The notes under the pieces: generated by a model
Seen by the model: only the letters and a program-made list of their open reading frames with translations
Database searches by the model: none
What the model was told of the DNA's origin: nothing
DNA from: Fusobacterium ulcerans
GTDB lineage: Bacteria > Fusobacteriota > Fusobacteriia > Fusobacteriales > Fusobacteriaceae
NCBI RefSeq assembly: GCF_003019675.1
Contig: NZ_CP028105.1
Coordinates: 760,282 to 824,281 of the forward strand
DNA length: 64,000 bases
Direction: 5' to 3'
Shown: positions 13,831-57,998 of the stretch, piece by piece
Layout: each line of letters opens with the position of its first letter
Numbering within the stretch: position 1 is the stretch's first letter
Made by a program: the position numbers and the translations under genes

Positions 13831-14523
13831 ATGAAAAACTTGCAAGAAAGTCTTGAAGGACTTAACCAGCACTACTTGGAACTTTTAAAAAACCTTAACA
13901 GAGTACTTGATGTAAATATAGAAATGTTGTATAAACAAAAATTAGATTCTGCTCTATATGGTGAATGTGTAGTGGTGGAAGATGTTATAAATGCTTTTGA
14001 AGTAAAATTAAAAGAGGATTCTATAATATCAATAGCTAGATTCCAACCAGCAGCTGGAAATTTAAGACTGCTTATTATGCTTATTAATAGTGCTCGTCTT
14101 TTAGAGAGAATGGGTGATCTTCTTAAAGCTAATTTTAAAATAATAAAAGATATTGAAAAAAGTTCTCCACAAGTATCAAAATATCTAAAAGAAACTCTTT
14201 ACCCTATGGTATTAAAAATTAAAACTATCTATGAAACTTATATCTCCGCTTTTATAAATAGTGATGAAAAAGCTCTTTATCTCCTTCTTACACAAGATGA
14301 AGAAATTGATGAAATGGCTGAAAAAAATATGACTACTCTTATTGATTTGATGAAAGCTTCTCCAGATAATGTAGAAGGAGGAACTTATTTAGTACTTCTG
14401 AATAAAAAATACGAAAGGTTCTCAGATCATGTTATGCATTTGGCAGTTGACCTTGTATATATTTTAAAAGGAGAAAACCTCAGAAAGCTGGAACTTCTTG
14501 AAGAAAAGAAAATAAAAAAATAA
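13831..14523 (+). CDS. phoU: Phosphate signalling regulator PhoU
   Basis: The 230-residue, mostly helical protein shows PhoU repeats: a first bundle ending with ISIARFQPAAGNLRLLIMLI and LERMGDLLKANF, and a second with the RFSDHVMHLAVDLVYILKG segment. The E/R-x-x-D patterns in these are the metal-binding positions of the family. It is the last gene of the operon, 60 bases after pstB. In other bacteria PhoU links PstB to PhoR and keeps the Pho regulon off when phosphate is plentiful. No hairpin terminator is obvious right after it; a new promoter follows within 10 bases. Confidence 0.93.
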   Translation: MKNLQESLEGLNQHYLELLKNLNRVLDVNIEMLYKQKLDSALYGECVVVEDVINAFEVKLKEDSIISIARFQPAAGNLRLLIMLINSARLLERMGDLLKANFKIIKDIEKSSPQVSKYLKETLYPMVLKIKTIYETYISAFINSDEKALYLLLTQDEEIDEMAEKNMTTLIDLMKASPDNVEGGTYLVLLNKKYERFSDHVMHLAVDLVYILKGENLRKLELLEEKKIKK

Positions 14524-14530
14524 AAATTTA

Positions 14531-14559
14531 TTGACAATTATATTTTCATATGATATACC
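14531..14559 (+). promoter_or_regulatory. Sigma-70 promoter for the leader ORF and amidohydrolase unit
   Basis: TTGACA (14531-14536) and TATACC (14554-14559) are separated by exactly 17 bases. The predicted start near 14566 places the 25-codon leader ORF about 30 bases into the transcript. Confidence 0.75.
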
Positions 14560-14597
14560 TAAAACAATAAGAAATTAAAAAAAGGGGGAAGTTCAGA

Positions 14598-14675
14598 ATG
14601 TTATTTAACAAACTAAGGATAAGGAACAGGAAAAGCAATAAAAATATTGAATACCTTATCTCTTTTGTCTGCTAA
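14598..14675 (+). CDS. 25-codon leader ORF (candidate attenuator peptide)
   Basis: This short ORF has a strong ribosome site (GGGGGA eight bases before ATG). It encodes a basic peptide starting MLFNKLRIRNRK and ending IEYLISFVC. Codons 7, 9 and 11 are all AGG, which looks rare beside the AGA arginine codons of the neighbouring genes, and the last sense codon is TGC (Cys). A promoter lies just upstream and two terminator-like hairpins lie between it and the M20 amidohydrolase gene. This is the layout of a translation-coupled attenuation leader. The peptide matches nothing I know; a functional small protein is the alternative. Confidence 0.55.
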   Translation: MLFNKLRIRNRKSNKNIEYLISFVC

Positions 14676-14866
14676 ACGACATTATGACTTTTTGATGAAT
14701 AAATTTTAGATCATATCTTGATTATTTTTGAAGATTTGGGCTTATATTTTTTTATATAACCCATGATCATATTTTTTAAATCAATGTCAGTGTAGCATTC
14801 ATATGTTATACTGACTTTTTATTTTACAAAAAATTATATAAATATAAAATATCAATGGAGGGAAAA
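14676..14866 (+). promoter_or_regulatory. Structured leader between the small ORF and the amidohydrolase
   Basis: No further ORF is seen. The first half can fold as GATCAT (14709-14714) with ATGATC (14763-14768) enclosing a second stem, TGGG/CCCA plus TTATAT/ATATAA (14737-14763), followed by a T-run at 14773-14778. The second hairpin is listed separately. The two could compete as attenuator structures. Confidence 0.5.
14786..14825 (+). terminator. Intrinsic terminator (attenuator) upstream of the amidohydrolase
   Basis: GTCAGTGTA (14786-14794) pairs with TATACTGAC (14807-14815) with one G-T pair, followed by TTTTTATTTT. It lies after the leader ORF and before the structural genes, so termination here would block their expression. 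Confidence 0.75.
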
Positions 14867-16045
14867 ATGGAAAACATGTCAGCAAAACTTTCAAAACTTT
14901 TTTCAAAATACGCAGAGGAATTTAAAGAATTAAATGAATATCTATATAACAACCCTGAACTGGGATTACAGGAATTCAAAGCTTGTGCAGCTCACACTGA
15001 AATGCTTAAAAAACACGGATTTACAGTTGAAACAAACTTTGCAGGACTTCCTACTTCTTTTATGGGAAAATACAGCACTGGTAAACCTGGACCAAAAGTA
15101 GCTATTCTTGCTGAATATGATGCTCTTCCTGGAATAGGACATGGATGCGGACATAATATATTTGGTGTTACAAGTGTAGCAGCTGGTATTCTTACTAAAG
15201 AGATCATGGGAGATGTAGCTGGTGAAATAATGGTAATAGGTACTCCTGCTGAGGAAACAAACGGAGCTAAAGTTCAAATGGCTGCTCTGGGAGTTTTTGA
15301 TGATATAGATGTAGCTATGGCTGCTCATCCTACTGGTGAAGCTCATCACAGAAGTGGTACTTCTCAAGCTATGGAAGCTATCCAATTTACATTTAAAGGT
15401 AAAACTGCTCATGCTGCTGGAGCTCCTCATGAAGGAATAAATGCTCTTGATGGAGTATTAATACTTTTCAACTCTATCAATGCTCTTAGACAGCAAACTT
15501 TAGAAACAGCAAGAATTCATGGAGTAATATCTAATGGTGGAAAAGCTGCTAATATAATTCCTGATTTAGCTGTAGCTAACTTCTATGTAAGAGCTAAAAC
15601 ATTAGACTACTTAAAAGGTCTTGTAGAAAGAGTAAAAAATTGTGCTAAGGGAGCTGCTCTTGCCAGTGGAACTACTTTAGAGATAATAAACTATGAAACT
15701 AGCTTTGCTGATCTTGTTACTAATGAAAAACTTTCAGCAGCTTATGAAAAAAATCTAAAATCTTTAGGTGTTACTGACATCAGAAGCAAAGAATCAGGAG
15801 GATCGACAGATATGGGAGATGTAAGCCACTGCTGCCCAGCTATACATCCATATTTCCCACTTACAACAGCACACTTGACTGGTCACAGTGTAGAATTTGC
15901 AAGTGCATCTATAGCTCCAGAAGCTTACAAAGGAATGGAAGAATCTGCTATATCAATGGCACTTACAGCTATGGATATTTTCACTGATGCTGAATTATTA
16001 AAAGAAATAAAAGATGAATTTAACAAAAATGTTAAAAAAATGTAG
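14867..16045 (+). CDS. M20 family metallo-amidohydrolase
   Basis: The 392-residue enzyme has the M20 dizinc site: EYDALPGIGHGCGHN near residue 85, PAEETNGAK (catalytic and metal Glu), HPTGEAHH and a C-terminal HxxxF segment near TTAHLTGHS. Family members hydrolyse N-acyl or aminobenzoyl amino acids and dipeptides; the sequence most resembles the AbgB/AmhX-type amidohydrolases. I choose the ATG at 14867 because GGAGGG overlaps the earlier in-frame ATG at 14855. It leads a unit with two amino-acid-binding proteins, so it probably releases or recycles an amino acid brought in by that system. The exact substrate is unknown. Confidence 0.88.
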   Translation: MENMSAKLSKLFSKYAEEFKELNEYLYNNPELGLQEFKACAAHTEMLKKHGFTVETNFAGLPTSFMGKYSTGKPGPKVAILAEYDALPGIGHGCGHNIFGVTSVAAGILTKEIMGDVAGEIMVIGTPAEETNGAKVQMAALGVFDDIDVAMAAHPTGEAHHRSGTSQAMEAIQFTFKGKTAHAAGAPHEGINALDGVLILFNSINALRQQTLETARIHGVISNGGKAANIIPDLAVANFYVRAKTLDYLKGLVERVKNCAKGAALASGTTLEIINYETSFADLVTNEKLSAAYEKNLKSLGVTDIRSKESGGSTDMGDVSHCCPAIHPYFPLTTAHLTGHSVEFASASIAPEAYKGMEESAISMALTAMDIFTDAELLKEIKDEFNKNVKKM

Positions 16046-16085
16046 AGGATAAAATTTAAACTATAAAATCTTGGGAGGAAAATTT

Positions 16086-16835
16086 ATGAAAAAACTTATT
16101 ATATTATTTATGATGATTTTATCAACACTTTCTTTTGCAGCTAAAAAACTTTATGTGGGAACTAATGCTGAATTTAAGCCTTACGAATATCTTGAAGGAG
16201 ATAAAATAACTGGATTCGATATTGACTTTATGGATGCTATTGGAAAAGAAATTGGATATGAAGTTCATTGGGTAAATATGGGATTTGACGGACTGCTTCC
16301 TGCCCTTCAAATGAAAAAAGTAGATGCTGTTATCGCTGGTATGTCTCAAACTCCTGAAAGACAAAAAGCTGTTGATTTTTCAATGCCATATATGTTCACA
16401 AAATCTGAGCACTATGTTATAGTTAATGAAAATAGTCCTATTGTCAAAAAAGAGGAGTTAAAAGATAAAAAAGTAGGAGTTCAGATTGGAACTATTCAGG
16501 AAGAATTTACTATTGCATTAGATGGAATACCTCAAATATATAATGCATGGACTGGAGCTTTAATGGATCTTCAACAGGATAAAATCTCTGCTGTCATCAT
16601 TGCAGATGTATCTGGGAATGCTTATCTTGAAAATATGAAAGGTCTTAAAAAAGTTGACATTGTTATAGACAGTCAGCCTGGAGCTTCTATAGCTTTTAGA
16701 AAAGGTGAAACTGACCTTGTAAAAGCTGTAAATGAAGCTATTTTAAAATTAAGAGATGATGGAACTTACCTTCAATTATTAGAAAAGTATTTTCCTGAAA
16801 GAGCTGAAGAATTTAAAGAAACATTTAAAAAATAG
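16086..16835 (+). CDS. Amino acid ABC transporter substrate-binding protein, paralogue 1
   Basis: A signal peptide (MKKLIILFMMILSTLSFA) is followed by a family 3 solute-binding fold: LYVGTNAEFKPYEYLEG, GFDIDFMDAIGKEIGYEV, MKKVDAVIAGMSQTPERQKAVDFSMPY. The TPERxxxVDFSxPY pattern marks binders of polar amino acids such as arginine, lysine or glutamine. The ATG at 16086 has GGGAGG upstream; the ORF could extend to TTG at 16071 but that overlaps the ribosome site. It lies 40 bases after the amidohydrolase and 11 before a close paralogue. No permease or ATPase gene is adjacent, so the partner transporter must be encoded elsewhere. Confidence 0.92.
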   Translation: MKKLIILFMMILSTLSFAAKKLYVGTNAEFKPYEYLEGDKITGFDIDFMDAIGKEIGYEVHWVNMGFDGLLPALQMKKVDAVIAGMSQTPERQKAVDFSMPYMFTKSEHYVIVNENSPIVKKEELKDKKVGVQIGTIQEEFTIALDGIPQIYNAWTGALMDLQQDKISAVIIADVSGNAYLENMKGLKKVDIVIDSQPGASIAFRKGETDLVKAVNEAILKLRDDGTYLQLLEKYFPERAEEFKETFKK

Positions 16836-16846
16836 GGGGATAAAAA

Positions 16847-17599
16847 ATGAAAAAACTTGTACTTATATTTACACTGCTTTTATCAACACTTTCTTTTGCA
16901 GCTAAAAAACTTTATGTGGGGACTAACGCTGAATTTAAACCTTATGAATATCTTGAAGATGGTAAAATGGTTGGATTTGATATTGGAGTAATGGATGAAC
17001 TTGGAAAAAAATTAGGTTATGAAATAGAATGGGTAAACATGTCTTTTGATGGACTGCTTCCTGCCCTTCAAATGAAAAAAATAGATGCTGTTATTGCTGG
17101 TATGTCTCAAACTCCTGAAAGACAAAAAGCTGTATCTTTCTCTATACCATATATTTTCTTTACTTCTGAACACTATGTTATAGTTAATGAAAACAGTACT
17201 TTTAAAACAAAAGAGGATTTAAAAGGAAAAACTGCTGGAGTTCAAATGGGAAGTATGCAGGAGCAATTTGCTATAAATAATGGAAGTGTTCCTAAATTAT
17301 ATAATACTTTCACTAATGCTTTAATGGACCTTCAAAATGGAAAGGTTGACTGTGTAATTATTGCAGACAACTCTGGAAAAGAATATCTTAACACTATGGA
17401 CAGAATTAAAAAAATAGATTCTATTATTGATCCTAAACCAGGTGCTTCTATAGCATTTAGAAAATCTGATAAAGAACTTGCAGAAAAATTCAGCGACGCT
17501 ATAGTTGAATTAAAGACTACTAAAGAATATTCTGACCTTGTAGAAAAATATTTTCCTGAAAGATTTGAAGATTTTAAAGCGCAAAATTTGACAAAATAG
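16847..17599 (+). CDS. Amino acid ABC transporter substrate-binding protein, paralogue 2
   Basis: This 250-residue protein is a tandem duplicate of the preceding gene. The signal peptide, the LYVGTNAEFKPYEYLE start of the mature protein and the DGLLPALQMKK and AGMSQTPERQKAV segments are nearly identical. The C-terminal lobe has diverged more (GVQMGSMQEQFAINNGSVP here against GVQIGTIQEEFTIALDGIP). The two lobes enclose the ligand, so divergence in one may change specificity. It is the last gene of the unit, and a strong terminator follows. Confidence 0.92.
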   Translation: MKKLVLIFTLLLSTLSFAAKKLYVGTNAEFKPYEYLEDGKMVGFDIGVMDELGKKLGYEIEWVNMSFDGLLPALQMKKIDAVIAGMSQTPERQKAVSFSIPYIFFTSEHYVIVNENSTFKTKEDLKGKTAGVQMGSMQEQFAINNGSVPKLYNTFTNALMDLQNGKVDCVIIADNSGKEYLNTMDRIKKIDSIIDPKPGASIAFRKSDKELAEKFSDAIVELKTTKEYSDLVEKYFPERFEDFKAQNLTK

Positions 17600-53313: not shown

Positions 53314-54495
53314 TTATTTTTTTATACTCAGTATGTGATTTACTGCCTTTTCTATTCTCTGTAACCCATCTTCTACTTTTTTAATAGAGCATCCTACATT
53401 AAGCCTCAAGAAGTATCTTCCCTCTTCTCCGTAAGTCAGTCCCGGCATTATTGCTACTCCCCCAATATCAATAAGATGCTTTTGAAACTCTTCATTTGAA
53501 ATCCCTAATCCTGAAAAATCTATCCATGCAAAATATGAACCTTGTGGAATTTCACATTTTAATAATGGAATATTTTTTTCCAGATACTCTTTTACATATT
53601 TTATATTATTTTCTGTATATTTTACCAGTTCATCTACCCAGTATCCACACTTGTCATATGCTGCTATTGTAGCTATTACTGCAAGTATTGAAGGTGATGA
53701 AAGAGCATCTCTATTTTTTAATATTCTTAAAAATTCATCTCTGTCACTTTGATTTGTTATAAACAGATATGATCCGCACAATGCTGGTATATTAAAAGTT
53801 TTTGAAGCTGATGTACATAAAACTATATTATCTATATAATCTCCTGCCTGTGATAAAATAGGTTTATGTTTCCCTCTATAAATTATATCCATATGTATCT
53901 CATCTGAAATTATGAAAACATTGTACTTTTTACATATCTCTATCATTTTTTTTAGTTCTTTTTCAGTCCATACTTTACCAGTAGGGTTATGAGGACTACA
54001 TAAAAGAAATATTTTTGCTTCTTTGCATTTAGATTCAAAATCATCAAAATCTATTTCATATCCATTTTCAACTTTTTTCAATGATGAAGTGAGAAGTTTT
54101 CTCTCATTATCTCCTATCACTTTAAAAAATCCGTCATATCCCGGAGTATTTATCAACACTCCATCACCTTTTTTAGACTTCATTTCAATAAATTTTGATA
54201 CTGCATAGATTACGCTCGGGCTGTATACTATCCACTCTTTATCTATCTGAAAATCAAATCTTCTGTTATACCATCCCTCAATGGAATTTTTAAAATCATC
54301 ATGATTCCATCTGCTGTATCCAAATATTCTGTGATTTATTCTTTTTATAAGAGCATCTACTATCTCTTCTGGAGATTCCAGATCCATATCTGATATAGTG
54401 AAAGGAAGAAGATCATCCTTTCCGAATCTGTCTTTTACATAATCCCATTGAGTACAGTAAGTCCCTCTTCTATCCTTTACTTCATCAAATCTCAT
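53314..54495 (-). CDS. malY: MalY/PatB-type PLP-dependent C-S lyase/aminotransferase
   Basis: The 393-residue fold-type I PLP enzyme has the Lys site in LCTSASKTFNIPAL, LLCSPHNPTGKVW, ISDEIHMDIIY, and the C-terminal FLRLNVGCS with the carboxylate Arg. MalY and PatB cleave cystathionine or cysteine conjugates; E. coli MalY also modulates MalT. The start at 54495 has GGTGAGA upstream. It lies 18 bases after a MalX-type PTS gene, the same malX-malY order as in E. coli. Confidence 0.9.
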   Translation of the reverse strand: MRFDEVKDRRGTYCTQWDYVKDRFGKDDLLPFTISDMDLESPEEIVDALIKRINHRIFGYSRWNHDDFKNSIEGWYNRRFDFQIDKEWIVYSPSVIYAVSKFIEMKSKKGDGVLINTPGYDGFFKVIGDNERKLLTSSLKKVENGYEIDFDDFESKCKEAKIFLLCSPHNPTGKVWTEKELKKMIEICKKYNVFIISDEIHMDIIYRGKHKPILSQAGDYIDNIVLCTSASKTFNIPALCGSYLFITNQSDRDEFLRILKNRDALSSPSILAVIATIAAYDKCGYWVDELVKYTENNIKYVKEYLEKNIPLLKCEIPQGSYFAWIDFSGLGISNEEFQKHLIDIGGVAIMPGLTYGEEGRYFLRLNVGCSIKKVEDGLQRIEKAVNHILSIKK

Positions 54496-56222: not shown

Positions 56223-57998
56223 TTATTCTTTTAAAAGTTTTTTTATTTTATTTCTTATATCATCAGATTTTTCCAATCCAATTATTTCATTGAGAAGTTT
56301 TTTCTTCTCTATCAATCTTATTAATTCAGATATAACTTTCAAATGTTCTATTTTGTTTCTGGCTGCAAGAAGAAATAAGATATCTGCATCTTCCTCTTCA
56401 TCTACTTTTATTCCTTGTTTTGAAACTATAAGAGTTATTCCCGGCTTCAAACAATTTTCTTTTTCCTTGTCATAACAAAATAATATTCTTTTATCTATGA
56501 AGAGATATCTTCCAAATTTTTCTACCATATCCTTTAGATTATATATACTCTTCTCCTTTATACATTTTTCTTTCAATAAAATATTCAGACCAGTTTCTAA
56601 AGCTTCACTGAAAGTTATTCTCTCATGGGAAACATATATACGATTTCTTCCTAAAAGTCTTATCAATCCATAGTCTGTCTCTTCTTCTCTGTCATCATCT
56701 ATAAACATGCCAAATTTTTCTTTTATATCCTCAGCTAAAAGGTCGTCATCTACATCCCTTGCATTTTGCTGTACCAATTTTAAAAGCTCTTTTAAAGATA
56801 TTTTTTTATTTTTTTTCTGCTCTAAATATTCCTCTATATATTTTGAAACATAGAATATCTCTTCATCTCTCAATGGTTCTTTGAGATGATGCTGGTTTTT
56901 CTCTGCAATCTCTTTTACCTTATTAAAAATTTCTATATTTATTTCATTAAAATCAAGAGATTTATTTAAATAAAAATTATTCTTTATTCTATAAATAGCT
57001 GGAAGAAGATACTTCAAAAGTTTATCTATTAATTCTCTCTCTTTAAGAAGATTTGTTTTCATTTCCATATCTAGATTTTCCAAAACTTTAGAAATGAATC
57101 TTTCCAATATGAGAATATTCTCAGAAAAAGTATCATTATAAAATCCACTCAAAAAATATTCTGTAAGATGGAGCATTTCATATTCTTGATTTTTGTCTAT
57201 AACTTTTTCAAGAACCTCCTTTATTTTCTTATACTCTTCAAGTTTTCTTAAAAAATCACTGTTATTTTTTTGTGTAATTATATGTCCATTTTTTATTCTT
57301 TCAAATGTAGCTATAAAATATATTGCTATTATATTTTTAAATTCGTTGGTAAAGTGAGCTTCAAGTTTTTCCTCTATCTCATCAATTACATCAGCTATTT
57401 TTTTTACATCATATCCTTTTACATACTCAGCTATTACTTTTTGCTCCTCTTTCTCACTGAGATACTTTTTCTTTATAAAAGCTATCTCTCTATTTTTTAT
57501 CTCAATATGATCCAACATTTTTAATAATTTTAAATGTCTTAACTTTTTTTCTTTTCCTGCTATATCCATTTTATTTTCATCTCTATGGAAATAAAGTTCA
57601 AATTCAGCAAGATAATTTTCTAAATCTTTGATATCCTTTTTTATAGTGGTTCTGCTGACTTTTAAGTCTGCTTCCATCTCTGATATTTTTACATTATCTC
57701 TAAACAGATAATTTATAAGAATATATTCTTCTCTTTCTTCTTGAGAAAAAACATACATACTCATATCTAAAGCCTCTACAAATTTTTCAAGTTCAATATC
57801 AGTTATAGAAAATTCAAGATTTCCTTTTTTTATCATTACTTCTGGAAGCTTCATTTTTTTAAGATAAAAATTTATATTTTCTACACTGTATCTTATATTT
57901 CGTTCGCTGACATTATATTTTTCTGCCAGAGAACTTATAGGGAAAATATTATTATTTATTTTTTCTAAAAGTTTTATATCTTTTCTATTTAAACTCAT
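56223..57998 (-). CDS. BglG-type PRD-containing transcriptional regulator
   Basis: The 591-residue protein begins with two HTH domains (SLAEKYNVSERNIRYSVENI, KISEMEADLKVSRTTIKKDI). Two PRD-like helical domains (about 165-395) and an EIIA-type C-terminal domain (about 450-590) follow. At the position where EIIA domains have the phospho-His (usual IALPHA) the sequence reads ILFCYDK, so this His is missing and the domain cannot be phosphorylated in the usual way. It probably activates a PTS operon, with malX-malY downstream the obvious candidate. Confidence 0.83.
   Translation of the reverse strand: MSLNRKDIKLLEKINNNIFPISSLAEKYNVSERNIRYSVENINFYLKKMKLPEVMIKKGNLEFSITDIELEKFVEALDMSMYVFSQEEREEYILINYLFRDNVKISEMEADLKVSRTTIKKDIKDLENYLAEFELYFHRDENKMDIAGKEKKLRHLKLLKMLDHIEIKNREIAFIKKKYLSEKEEQKVIAEYVKGYDVKKIADVIDEIEEKLEAHFTNEFKNIIAIYFIATFERIKNGHIITQKNNSDFLRKLEEYKKIKEVLEKVIDKNQEYEMLHLTEYFLSGFYNDTFSENILILERFISKVLENLDMEMKTNLLKERELIDKLLKYLLPAIYRIKNNFYLNKSLDFNEINIEIFNKVKEIAEKNQHHLKEPLRDEEIFYVSKYIEEYLEQKKNKKISLKELLKLVQQNARDVDDDLLAEDIKEKFGMFIDDDREEETDYGLIRLLGRNRIYVSHERITFSEALETGLNILLKEKCIKEKSIYNLKDMVEKFGRYLFIDKRILFCYDKEKENCLKPGITLIVSKQGIKVDEEEDADILFLLAARNKIEHLKVISELIRLIEKKKLLNEIIGLEKSDDIRNKIKKLLKE

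What the first reader, a model, noticed from the sequence alone, without database searches (positions are those of the whole stretch)
14531..14866. Leader peptide plus tandem attenuators ahead of an amino-acid amidohydrolase/binding-protein unit
Seen: a 17-bp-spaced promoter, a 25-codon ORF with a strong ribosome site, then two terminator-type hairpins (14709-14778 and 14786-14825) before the M20 gene. The ORF has three AGG arginine codons within five codons and ends in Cys-stop. Known: translation-coupled attenuation uses exactly this order. Inferred: the unit senses charged tRNA (Arg or Cys) or ribosome stalling and controls uptake and hydrolysis of an amino-acid derivative. The peptide resembles no leader I know. 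This is my best candidate for an undescribed regulatory system.
Basis: partly seen in the sequence, partly recalled or inferred. Interest (0 to 1): 0.8.

Follow-up and report, generated by a model that had tools for sequence, protein, structure and literature searches.

The report
Arginine-sensing leader-peptide attenuator in Fusobacterium
Ahead of an arginine-scavenging gene cluster this gut bacterium carries a tiny decoy gene rich in a rare arginine codon, so that when arginine runs low a stalled ribosome most likely lets RNA polymerase pass a stop signal; the same device sits before other arginine genes across the bacterial family, including the biosynthesis gene argG, in a genome with no detectable ArgR repressor.

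Summary
The reported elements are real: promoter (TTGACA-17-TATACC), strong ribosome site, 25-codon ORF with AGG at codons 7, 9 and 11, and a strong intrinsic terminator (14786-14825). The other hairpin (14709-14768) is not a proper terminator, so 'tandem attenuators' is not supported, and the final Cys codon is not conserved. The best explanation is classical ribosome-mediated transcription attenuation specific for arginine. All 12 genomes of the genus have a leader ORF containing AGG before the orthologous M20 gene; 11 of 18 orthologues examined in other genera do too, some with otherwise unrelated peptides. AGG triplets lie in the reading frame 51 times and out of frame once. In the same genome, AGG leaders precede three more arginine-type binding-protein genes, one followed directly by argG; 22 of 27 argG clusters located across the family have an AGG leader plus terminator. 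In two other genera the M20 gene sits in one cluster with argH and argG. No ArgR was found. Folding with a ribosome placed on the arginine codons, versus on the stop codon, switches antiterminator to terminator in the window and most relatives. Nothing here was tested by experiment, and RNA covariation is weak. I found no published description in the literature searched.

The parts
14531..14559 (+). sigma-70-type promoter TTGACA-17-TATACC
   Evidence: sequence; also present upstream of the leader in genus orthologues
14584..14588 (+). Shine-Dalgarno GGGGG of the leader ORF
   Evidence: purine-rich SD at this place in the genus orthologues
14598..14675 (+). leader ORF MLFNKLRIRNRKSNKNIEYLISFVC*
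   Evidence: leader ORF in 12 of 12 genus genomes
14616..14630 (+). regulatory Arg codons AGG (14616-14618, 14622-14624, 14628-14630)
   Evidence: 51 AGG in frame against 1 out of frame over 26 leaders
14597..14624 (+). segment 1: pairs with segment 2 when no ribosome is on the leader
   Evidence: inner helix 90% paired over 13 sequences
14654..14683 (+). segment 2: its end, TGCTAAACGACATT (14670-14683), overlaps the stop codon and is the antiterminator strand
14783..14797 (+). segment 3: 5' arm of the terminator, complementary to 14670-14683
   Evidence: own partner ranks 1 of 23
14786..14825 (+). intrinsic terminator hairpin 14786-14815 (segments 3:4) and U tract
14867..16045 (+). M20 amidohydrolase/dipeptidase gene (ATG at 14867 after SD GGAGGG; in-frame ATG also at 14855)
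   Evidence: TIGR01891 above cut-off; PDB relatives HmrA and PM20D2 Xaa-Arg dipeptidase
16086..16835 (+). ArtJ/ArtI-like amino-acid-binding protein (first copy)
16847..17599 (+). ArtJ/ArtI-like amino-acid-binding protein (second copy)

Best explanation
This is a ribosome-mediated transcription attenuator that reads arginine supply through the rare Arg codon AGG. Without translation, segment 1 (start of the leader ORF) pairs with segment 2 (its end), the terminator 3:4 forms and transcription stops near 14820. With enough charged tRNA-Arg the ribosome runs to the stop codon, covers segment 2, and the terminator again forms. When arginyl-tRNA is short the ribosome stalls at AGG codons 7, 9 or 11 and covers segment 1; segment 2 then pairs with segment 3, the terminator cannot form, and the M20 peptidase and two arginine-type binding proteins are made, scavenging arginine from peptides or derivatives. 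The same device precedes binding-protein and argG genes, so it acts as a distributed arginine regulator in a genome where no ArgR was found. Shown by sequence: ORF, AGG frame conservation, terminator, gene context, lack of an ArgR match. Supported by modelling: the three-way switch. Inferred: stalling, termination in vivo, enzyme substrate.
For: (1) Leader ORF with at least one AGG upstream of the M20 orthologue in 12 of 12 genus genomes and 11 of 18 orthologues examined in other genera. (2) Arg is the most enriched residue in codons 2-15 (5.6-fold; next is Asn, 3.1-fold) and one of two residues present in every member of all 10 groups. (3) AGG is in frame 51 times, out of frame once; argG leaders 33 against 1. 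(4) An AGG leader plus terminator lies ahead of binding-protein-argG clusters in 22 of 27 located loci; that detection did not require AGG. (5) In two other genera M20, binding protein, argH and argG lie in one cluster. (6) No ArgR match in a complete genome. (7) Ribosome-position folding: window 0.75 on Arg codons, 0.29 at stop; only 2 of 60 shuffles reach that difference; Arg exceeds stop in all 18 argG leaders, some by little. (8) The same genome has a single tRNA-Arg(CCT) among the tRNA genes typed. (9) A leader with five His codons before a complete amino-acid ABC transporter in the same genome shows the same contrast.
Against: No expression or termination data. Inner 1:2 helix shows no covariation beyond shuffles. 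Own versus swapped segment 2:3 pairing is only modestly better than permuted, p 0.026-0.075 depending on the set. Some leaders show no stall/stop contrast: L042, L043, L098, L102 and the very short ones L099, L101, L103. L043 has an early in-frame stop. Seven non-genus M20 orthologues have no leader immediately upstream. Starts for L099, L101, L102 and L103 were picked by eye.
Confidence: 0.83

Rival explanations
1. The AGG triplets are there only because segment 1 must be purine-rich to pair with segment 2 (or mimic SD sites); the element is an RNA switch or constitutive attenuator and the peptide frame is irrelevant.
For: AGG codons do lie in segment 1 and pair with CCUU-type sequence.
Against: 51 AGG in frame against 1 out of frame over 26 leaders, 33 against 1 in argG leaders; leader ORF with SD kept although sequences diverge beyond alignment; linkage to argG.
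Confidence: 0.05
2. A nascent leader peptide arrests the ribosome in response to arginine, ornithine or an antibiotic (as SpeFL or erm-type leaders do).
For: A recurring L-R-x-R pattern; RLR-type leaders are known in antibiotic-inducible systems (PMC8632094); Salmonella speF orf34 has AGG-CGG and responds to ornithine and arginine (PMC6386406).
Against: Arg codons are at positions 2-11, too early for most arrest peptides (general knowledge); peptides differ greatly between genera apart from Arg; controlled genes are arginine genes, not resistance genes.
Confidence: 0.06
3. The leader senses cysteine through the terminal TGC codon.
For: Cys-stop in the window and five close relatives.
Against: Absent from the C terminus of the other orthologues; a ribosome at TGC gives nearly the stop-codon state (0.36 against 0.29); TGCTA is part of segment 2.
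Confidence: 0.02
4. The terminator is simply the 3' end of the upstream pst-phoU operon or of a small RNA, and the M20 gene has another promoter.
For: phoU ends just upstream at 14523; a TTTACA-16-TAAAAT match lies at 14823-14850.
Against: A conserved promoter lies between phoU and the leader; in other genera the leader and terminator persist with other upstream genes.
Confidence: 0.04

Closest known systems
Ribosome-mediated transcription attenuators of trp/his/leu/thr operons (enterobacteria)
   Same: Leader ORF with control codons, alternative 1:2, 2:3 and 3:4 structures, intrinsic terminator, stop codon overlapping segment 2
   Different: Control codon is Arg AGG; controls scavenging and binding-protein genes plus argG; occurs in Fusobacteriaceae; long linker with an extra hairpin between segments 2 and 3
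Salmonella speF orf34 leader (PMC6386406)
   Same: Short leader ORF with rare Arg codons (AGG, CGG) whose pausing responds to arginine
   Different: speF works through Rho, RBS sequestration and RNase G, has no intrinsic terminator, and controls ornithine decarboxylase
His leader peptides at hisS/hisZ in bacilli (PMC2965389)
   Same: Leader peptides outside Proteobacteria acting with premature terminators
   Different: Histidine-specific, Firmicutes
T-box riboswitches on amino-acid genes
   Same: Read tRNA charging to control amino-acid genes by antitermination
   Different: No leader ORF; the tRNA binds RNA directly; no T-box was found in Fusobacteria (PMC2494555) and no Rfam match in the window

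Membership tests
Ribosome-mediated transcription attenuator | Translatable leader ORF with SD, conserved in frame | tested here: met
Ribosome-mediated transcription attenuator | Enrichment of codons for the amino acid handled by the controlled genes | tested here: met
   AGG/Arg; argG, argH, ArtJ-like context
Ribosome-mediated transcription attenuator | Intrinsic terminator between leader ORF and first gene | tested here: met
Ribosome-mediated transcription attenuator | Mutually exclusive 1:2, 2:3 and 3:4 structures set by ribosome position | tested here: met
   window and most relatives; not met in L042, L043, L098, L099, L101, L102, L103
Ribosome-mediated transcription attenuator | Compensatory covariation of the alternative helices | tested here: inconclusive
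Ribosome-mediated transcription attenuator | Read-through rises when the cognate aminoacyl-tRNA is limiting | not testable with these tools
   needs experiment
T-box or other Rfam riboswitch | Match to a described RNA family | tested here: not met
   no Rfam match at gathering score in the window
SpeFL-type arrest peptide | Conserved peptide core acting on Rho-dependent termination | tested here: not met
   peptides share little beyond Arg; an intrinsic terminator is present
PM20D2-like Xaa-Arg dipeptidase (controlled enzyme) | Sequence relation to PM20D2 and specificity for basic residues | tested here: inconclusive
   HmrA and PM20D2 are the only PDB relatives below 1e-20; specificity not testable

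The most novel reading that the evidence does not exclude
Fusobacteriaceae regulate arginine supply mainly without a repressor protein, through a distributed set of independent leader-peptide attenuators that all read the single rare codon AGG, and hence the charging of one minor tRNA-Arg(CCU), as the sensor of arginine shortage.
Probability: 0.5. Interest if true: 0.72.

Novelty: new variant of a known kind. Interest (0 to 1): 0.6.

Why it matters
Arginine genes are usually presented as ArgR-controlled, and the classical attenuator textbook set has no arginine member. A family-wide arginine attenuator set in Fusobacteria, human gut and oral bacteria some of which are linked to disease, would extend ribosome-mediated attenuation to a phylum where the papers searched describe none. 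It would explain how bacteria with no detectable ArgR control arginine acquisition, and it offers a natural test of the selective-charging theory (PMC1183508) for why attenuators choose particular synonymous codons. It also predicts that many unannotated short ORFs upstream of amino-acid binding proteins in these genomes are sensors that reveal the substrate of the transporter.

Tried and rejected
Rfam scan of the window: no match. Cys sensing: rejected. Tandem terminators: the first hairpin is not a terminator by scan. Covariation of the 1:2 helix: no signal above shuffles; a first alignment used wrong coordinates and was replaced. Swap test of segments 2 and 3: only modest. Other M20 genes of the genome: 29 M20_dimer genes, and I judged only the window gene to have a convincing leader plus terminator. 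The other AGG-bearing short ORFs with terminator in the window, on the - strand, are set aside as background: the one at 53527 lies inside an aminotransferase gene, the one near 56401 was not read further. The genome-contig scan gave few Fusobacteriaceae, so the genome search was used. Ten literature searches found no description of an arginine leader attenuator in Fusobacterium; most subscription papers are not held.

Full report
Setting. The window lies in a 3.54-Mb single-contig genome. Its nearest held relatives form one genus with eleven other genomes, one of which shares a contig length with a record titled Fusobacterium mortiferum. The finding sits between phoU (end of a pst cluster) and an M20 gene followed by two tandem binding-protein genes.

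The observation. Promoter, SD, 25-codon ORF, AGG codons and terminator are present as described. AGG makes up 7.2% of Arg codons and 0.25% of all codons in the window's genes, so three within five codons is not chance. The first of the two hairpins lacks an adjoining U tract and is not listed by the terminator scan; only the second is a terminator. Two features were missed: a long hairpin between the start and end of the ORF (segments 1:2), and complementarity between the stop-codon region TGCTAAACGACATT (14670-14683) and the terminator's 5' arm AATGTCAGTGTAGCA (14783-14797).

Conservation upstream of M20. All 12 genomes of the genus have a leader ORF at this place, with peptides as different as MLFNKLRIRNRKSNKN..., MFFSKLRIRKNEN..., MLLRTLKLRKFN... 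and MLLRNRKLRNLNN.... In other genera of the family, 11 of 18 M20 orthologues examined have one, including MMLLRRRQLNINF..., MKLSVRRQLNIK..., MLKNTRRQRNIK..., MRKIRMRHRRTKNRISV* and the very short MENRYIEN*. What they share is Arg encoded by AGG or AGA. Over ten groups Arg is enriched 5.6-fold in codons 2-15, more than any other residue. AGG occurs 51 times in frame and once out of frame, which argues against a purely RNA-level or purine-content explanation. Starts of the g5 and g13 leaders were chosen by eye, so they carry less weight. The terminal Cys is confined to the window type and its closest relatives.

Other genes with the same device. A binding-protein survey of the same genome found further leader ORFs ahead of binding proteins: MLKALKLRNRKYTT..., MLRRLRNRLKINNN... 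and MLFKNLRSMPQLN..., the last first seen as a DNA match. A search for argininosuccinate synthase, made because the hypothesis predicted an arginine link, placed argG directly downstream of the first of these binding proteins. Over the family, argG was located in 27 of 30 loci; in 22 a leader ORF with SD, downstream terminator and at least one AGG was found by a script that did not require AGG. Of the 18 argG leaders then modelled, AGG was in frame 33 times and out of frame once. Orthologues of the other two binding proteins carry AGG leaders in other genomes of the genus. In two other genera the M20 gene, a binding protein, argH-like and argG genes lie in one cluster behind the M20 leader. 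The genome has no ArgR match. It has tRNA-Arg(CCT), which reads AGG, found once among the tRNA genes typed.

Mechanism modelling. With the transcript cut at the terminator loop, I computed how much of the terminator's 5' arm is captured by upstream RNA for each ribosome position. In the window it is 0.75 with the ribosome on the Arg codons, 0.29 at the stop codon and 0.43 with no ribosome. The stall-minus-stop difference (0.45) was reached by 2 of 60 shuffles of the intervening RNA (null 0.03 +- 0.16). The same direction holds for most relatives, for the His-type leader used as an internal comparison, and for all 18 argG leaders, in three of them by less than 0.1. It fails for L042, L043, L098, L102 and the very short leaders L099, L101 and L103. 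Tests of pairing by sequence change are weaker: the inner 1:2 helix is 90% paired without excess covariation, and own segment 2:3 partners beat swapped ones only modestly. The three-way switch is therefore supported by thermodynamics and anatomy, not by strong covariation.

The controlled enzyme. The M20 protein passes TIGR01891, and its only PDB relatives below 1e-20 are HmrA and PM20D2, named Xaa-Arg dipeptidase. The binding proteins match the Lys/Arg/Orn and ArtI/ArtJ models below their curated cut-offs. A role in freeing and capturing arginine is likely, but the exact substrate is inferred.

Known relatives. The mechanism is that of trp- and his-type attenuators. Salmonella speF orf34 also uses rare Arg codons but acts through Rho, RBS masking and RNase G (PMC6386406). 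No T-boxes were reported in Fusobacteria (PMC2494555). A 2010 survey knew of no leader-peptide systems outside Proteobacteria and Actinobacteria before its own His leaders in bacilli (PMC2965389). A term-seq study of F. nucleatum does not mention attenuation in its main text (PMC11005410). Rare or selectively charged codons in leaders are expected on theory (PMC1183508). I therefore file it as a new variant, by specificity and use, of a known kind.

Noticed in passing
L201 (same genome, C1:3213700-3218500); leader read in L109: Leader MKVTSVLKNTLHHHHHR* (five His codons) plus terminator ahead of a complete amino-acid ABC transporter (binding protein, permease, ATPase): a likely histidine attenuator. 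The binding protein scores best to a cystine-type model, so the leader may correct its annotation.
   Followed up: partly
L019 (another genus of the family), match 1501-1554: Leader MSKRLTWWCKNES... with two Trp codons and a terminator-like hairpin ahead of a lipoprotein binding protein: a likely tryptophan attenuator.
   Followed up: no
L198:1-2602: AGG leader, binding protein and argG in one cluster; the 40-codon leader is longer than the others and its stop lies far upstream of the terminator.
   Followed up: yes
L199 and L200: Two more AGG-leader binding-protein clusters, one followed by an alanine-racemase-like gene, the other by a glycerol-dehydrogenase-like gene and an aminotransferase; possible arginine-related catabolism.
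   Followed up: partly
L043 (G008), leader upstream of M20: In-frame TAA at codon 14 cuts the leader short although the downstream frame stays open; attenuation may be altered in this species.
   Followed up: partly
window 16071-17599: Two tandem arginine-type binding proteins with no permease or ATPase gene following in the cluster; the partner transporter must lie elsewhere.
   Followed up: no
L234 (G015): M20-binding protein-argH-argG cluster also holds a gene between the binding protein and argH whose start looks like an opine/octopine-type dehydrogenase; not searched.
   Followed up: no
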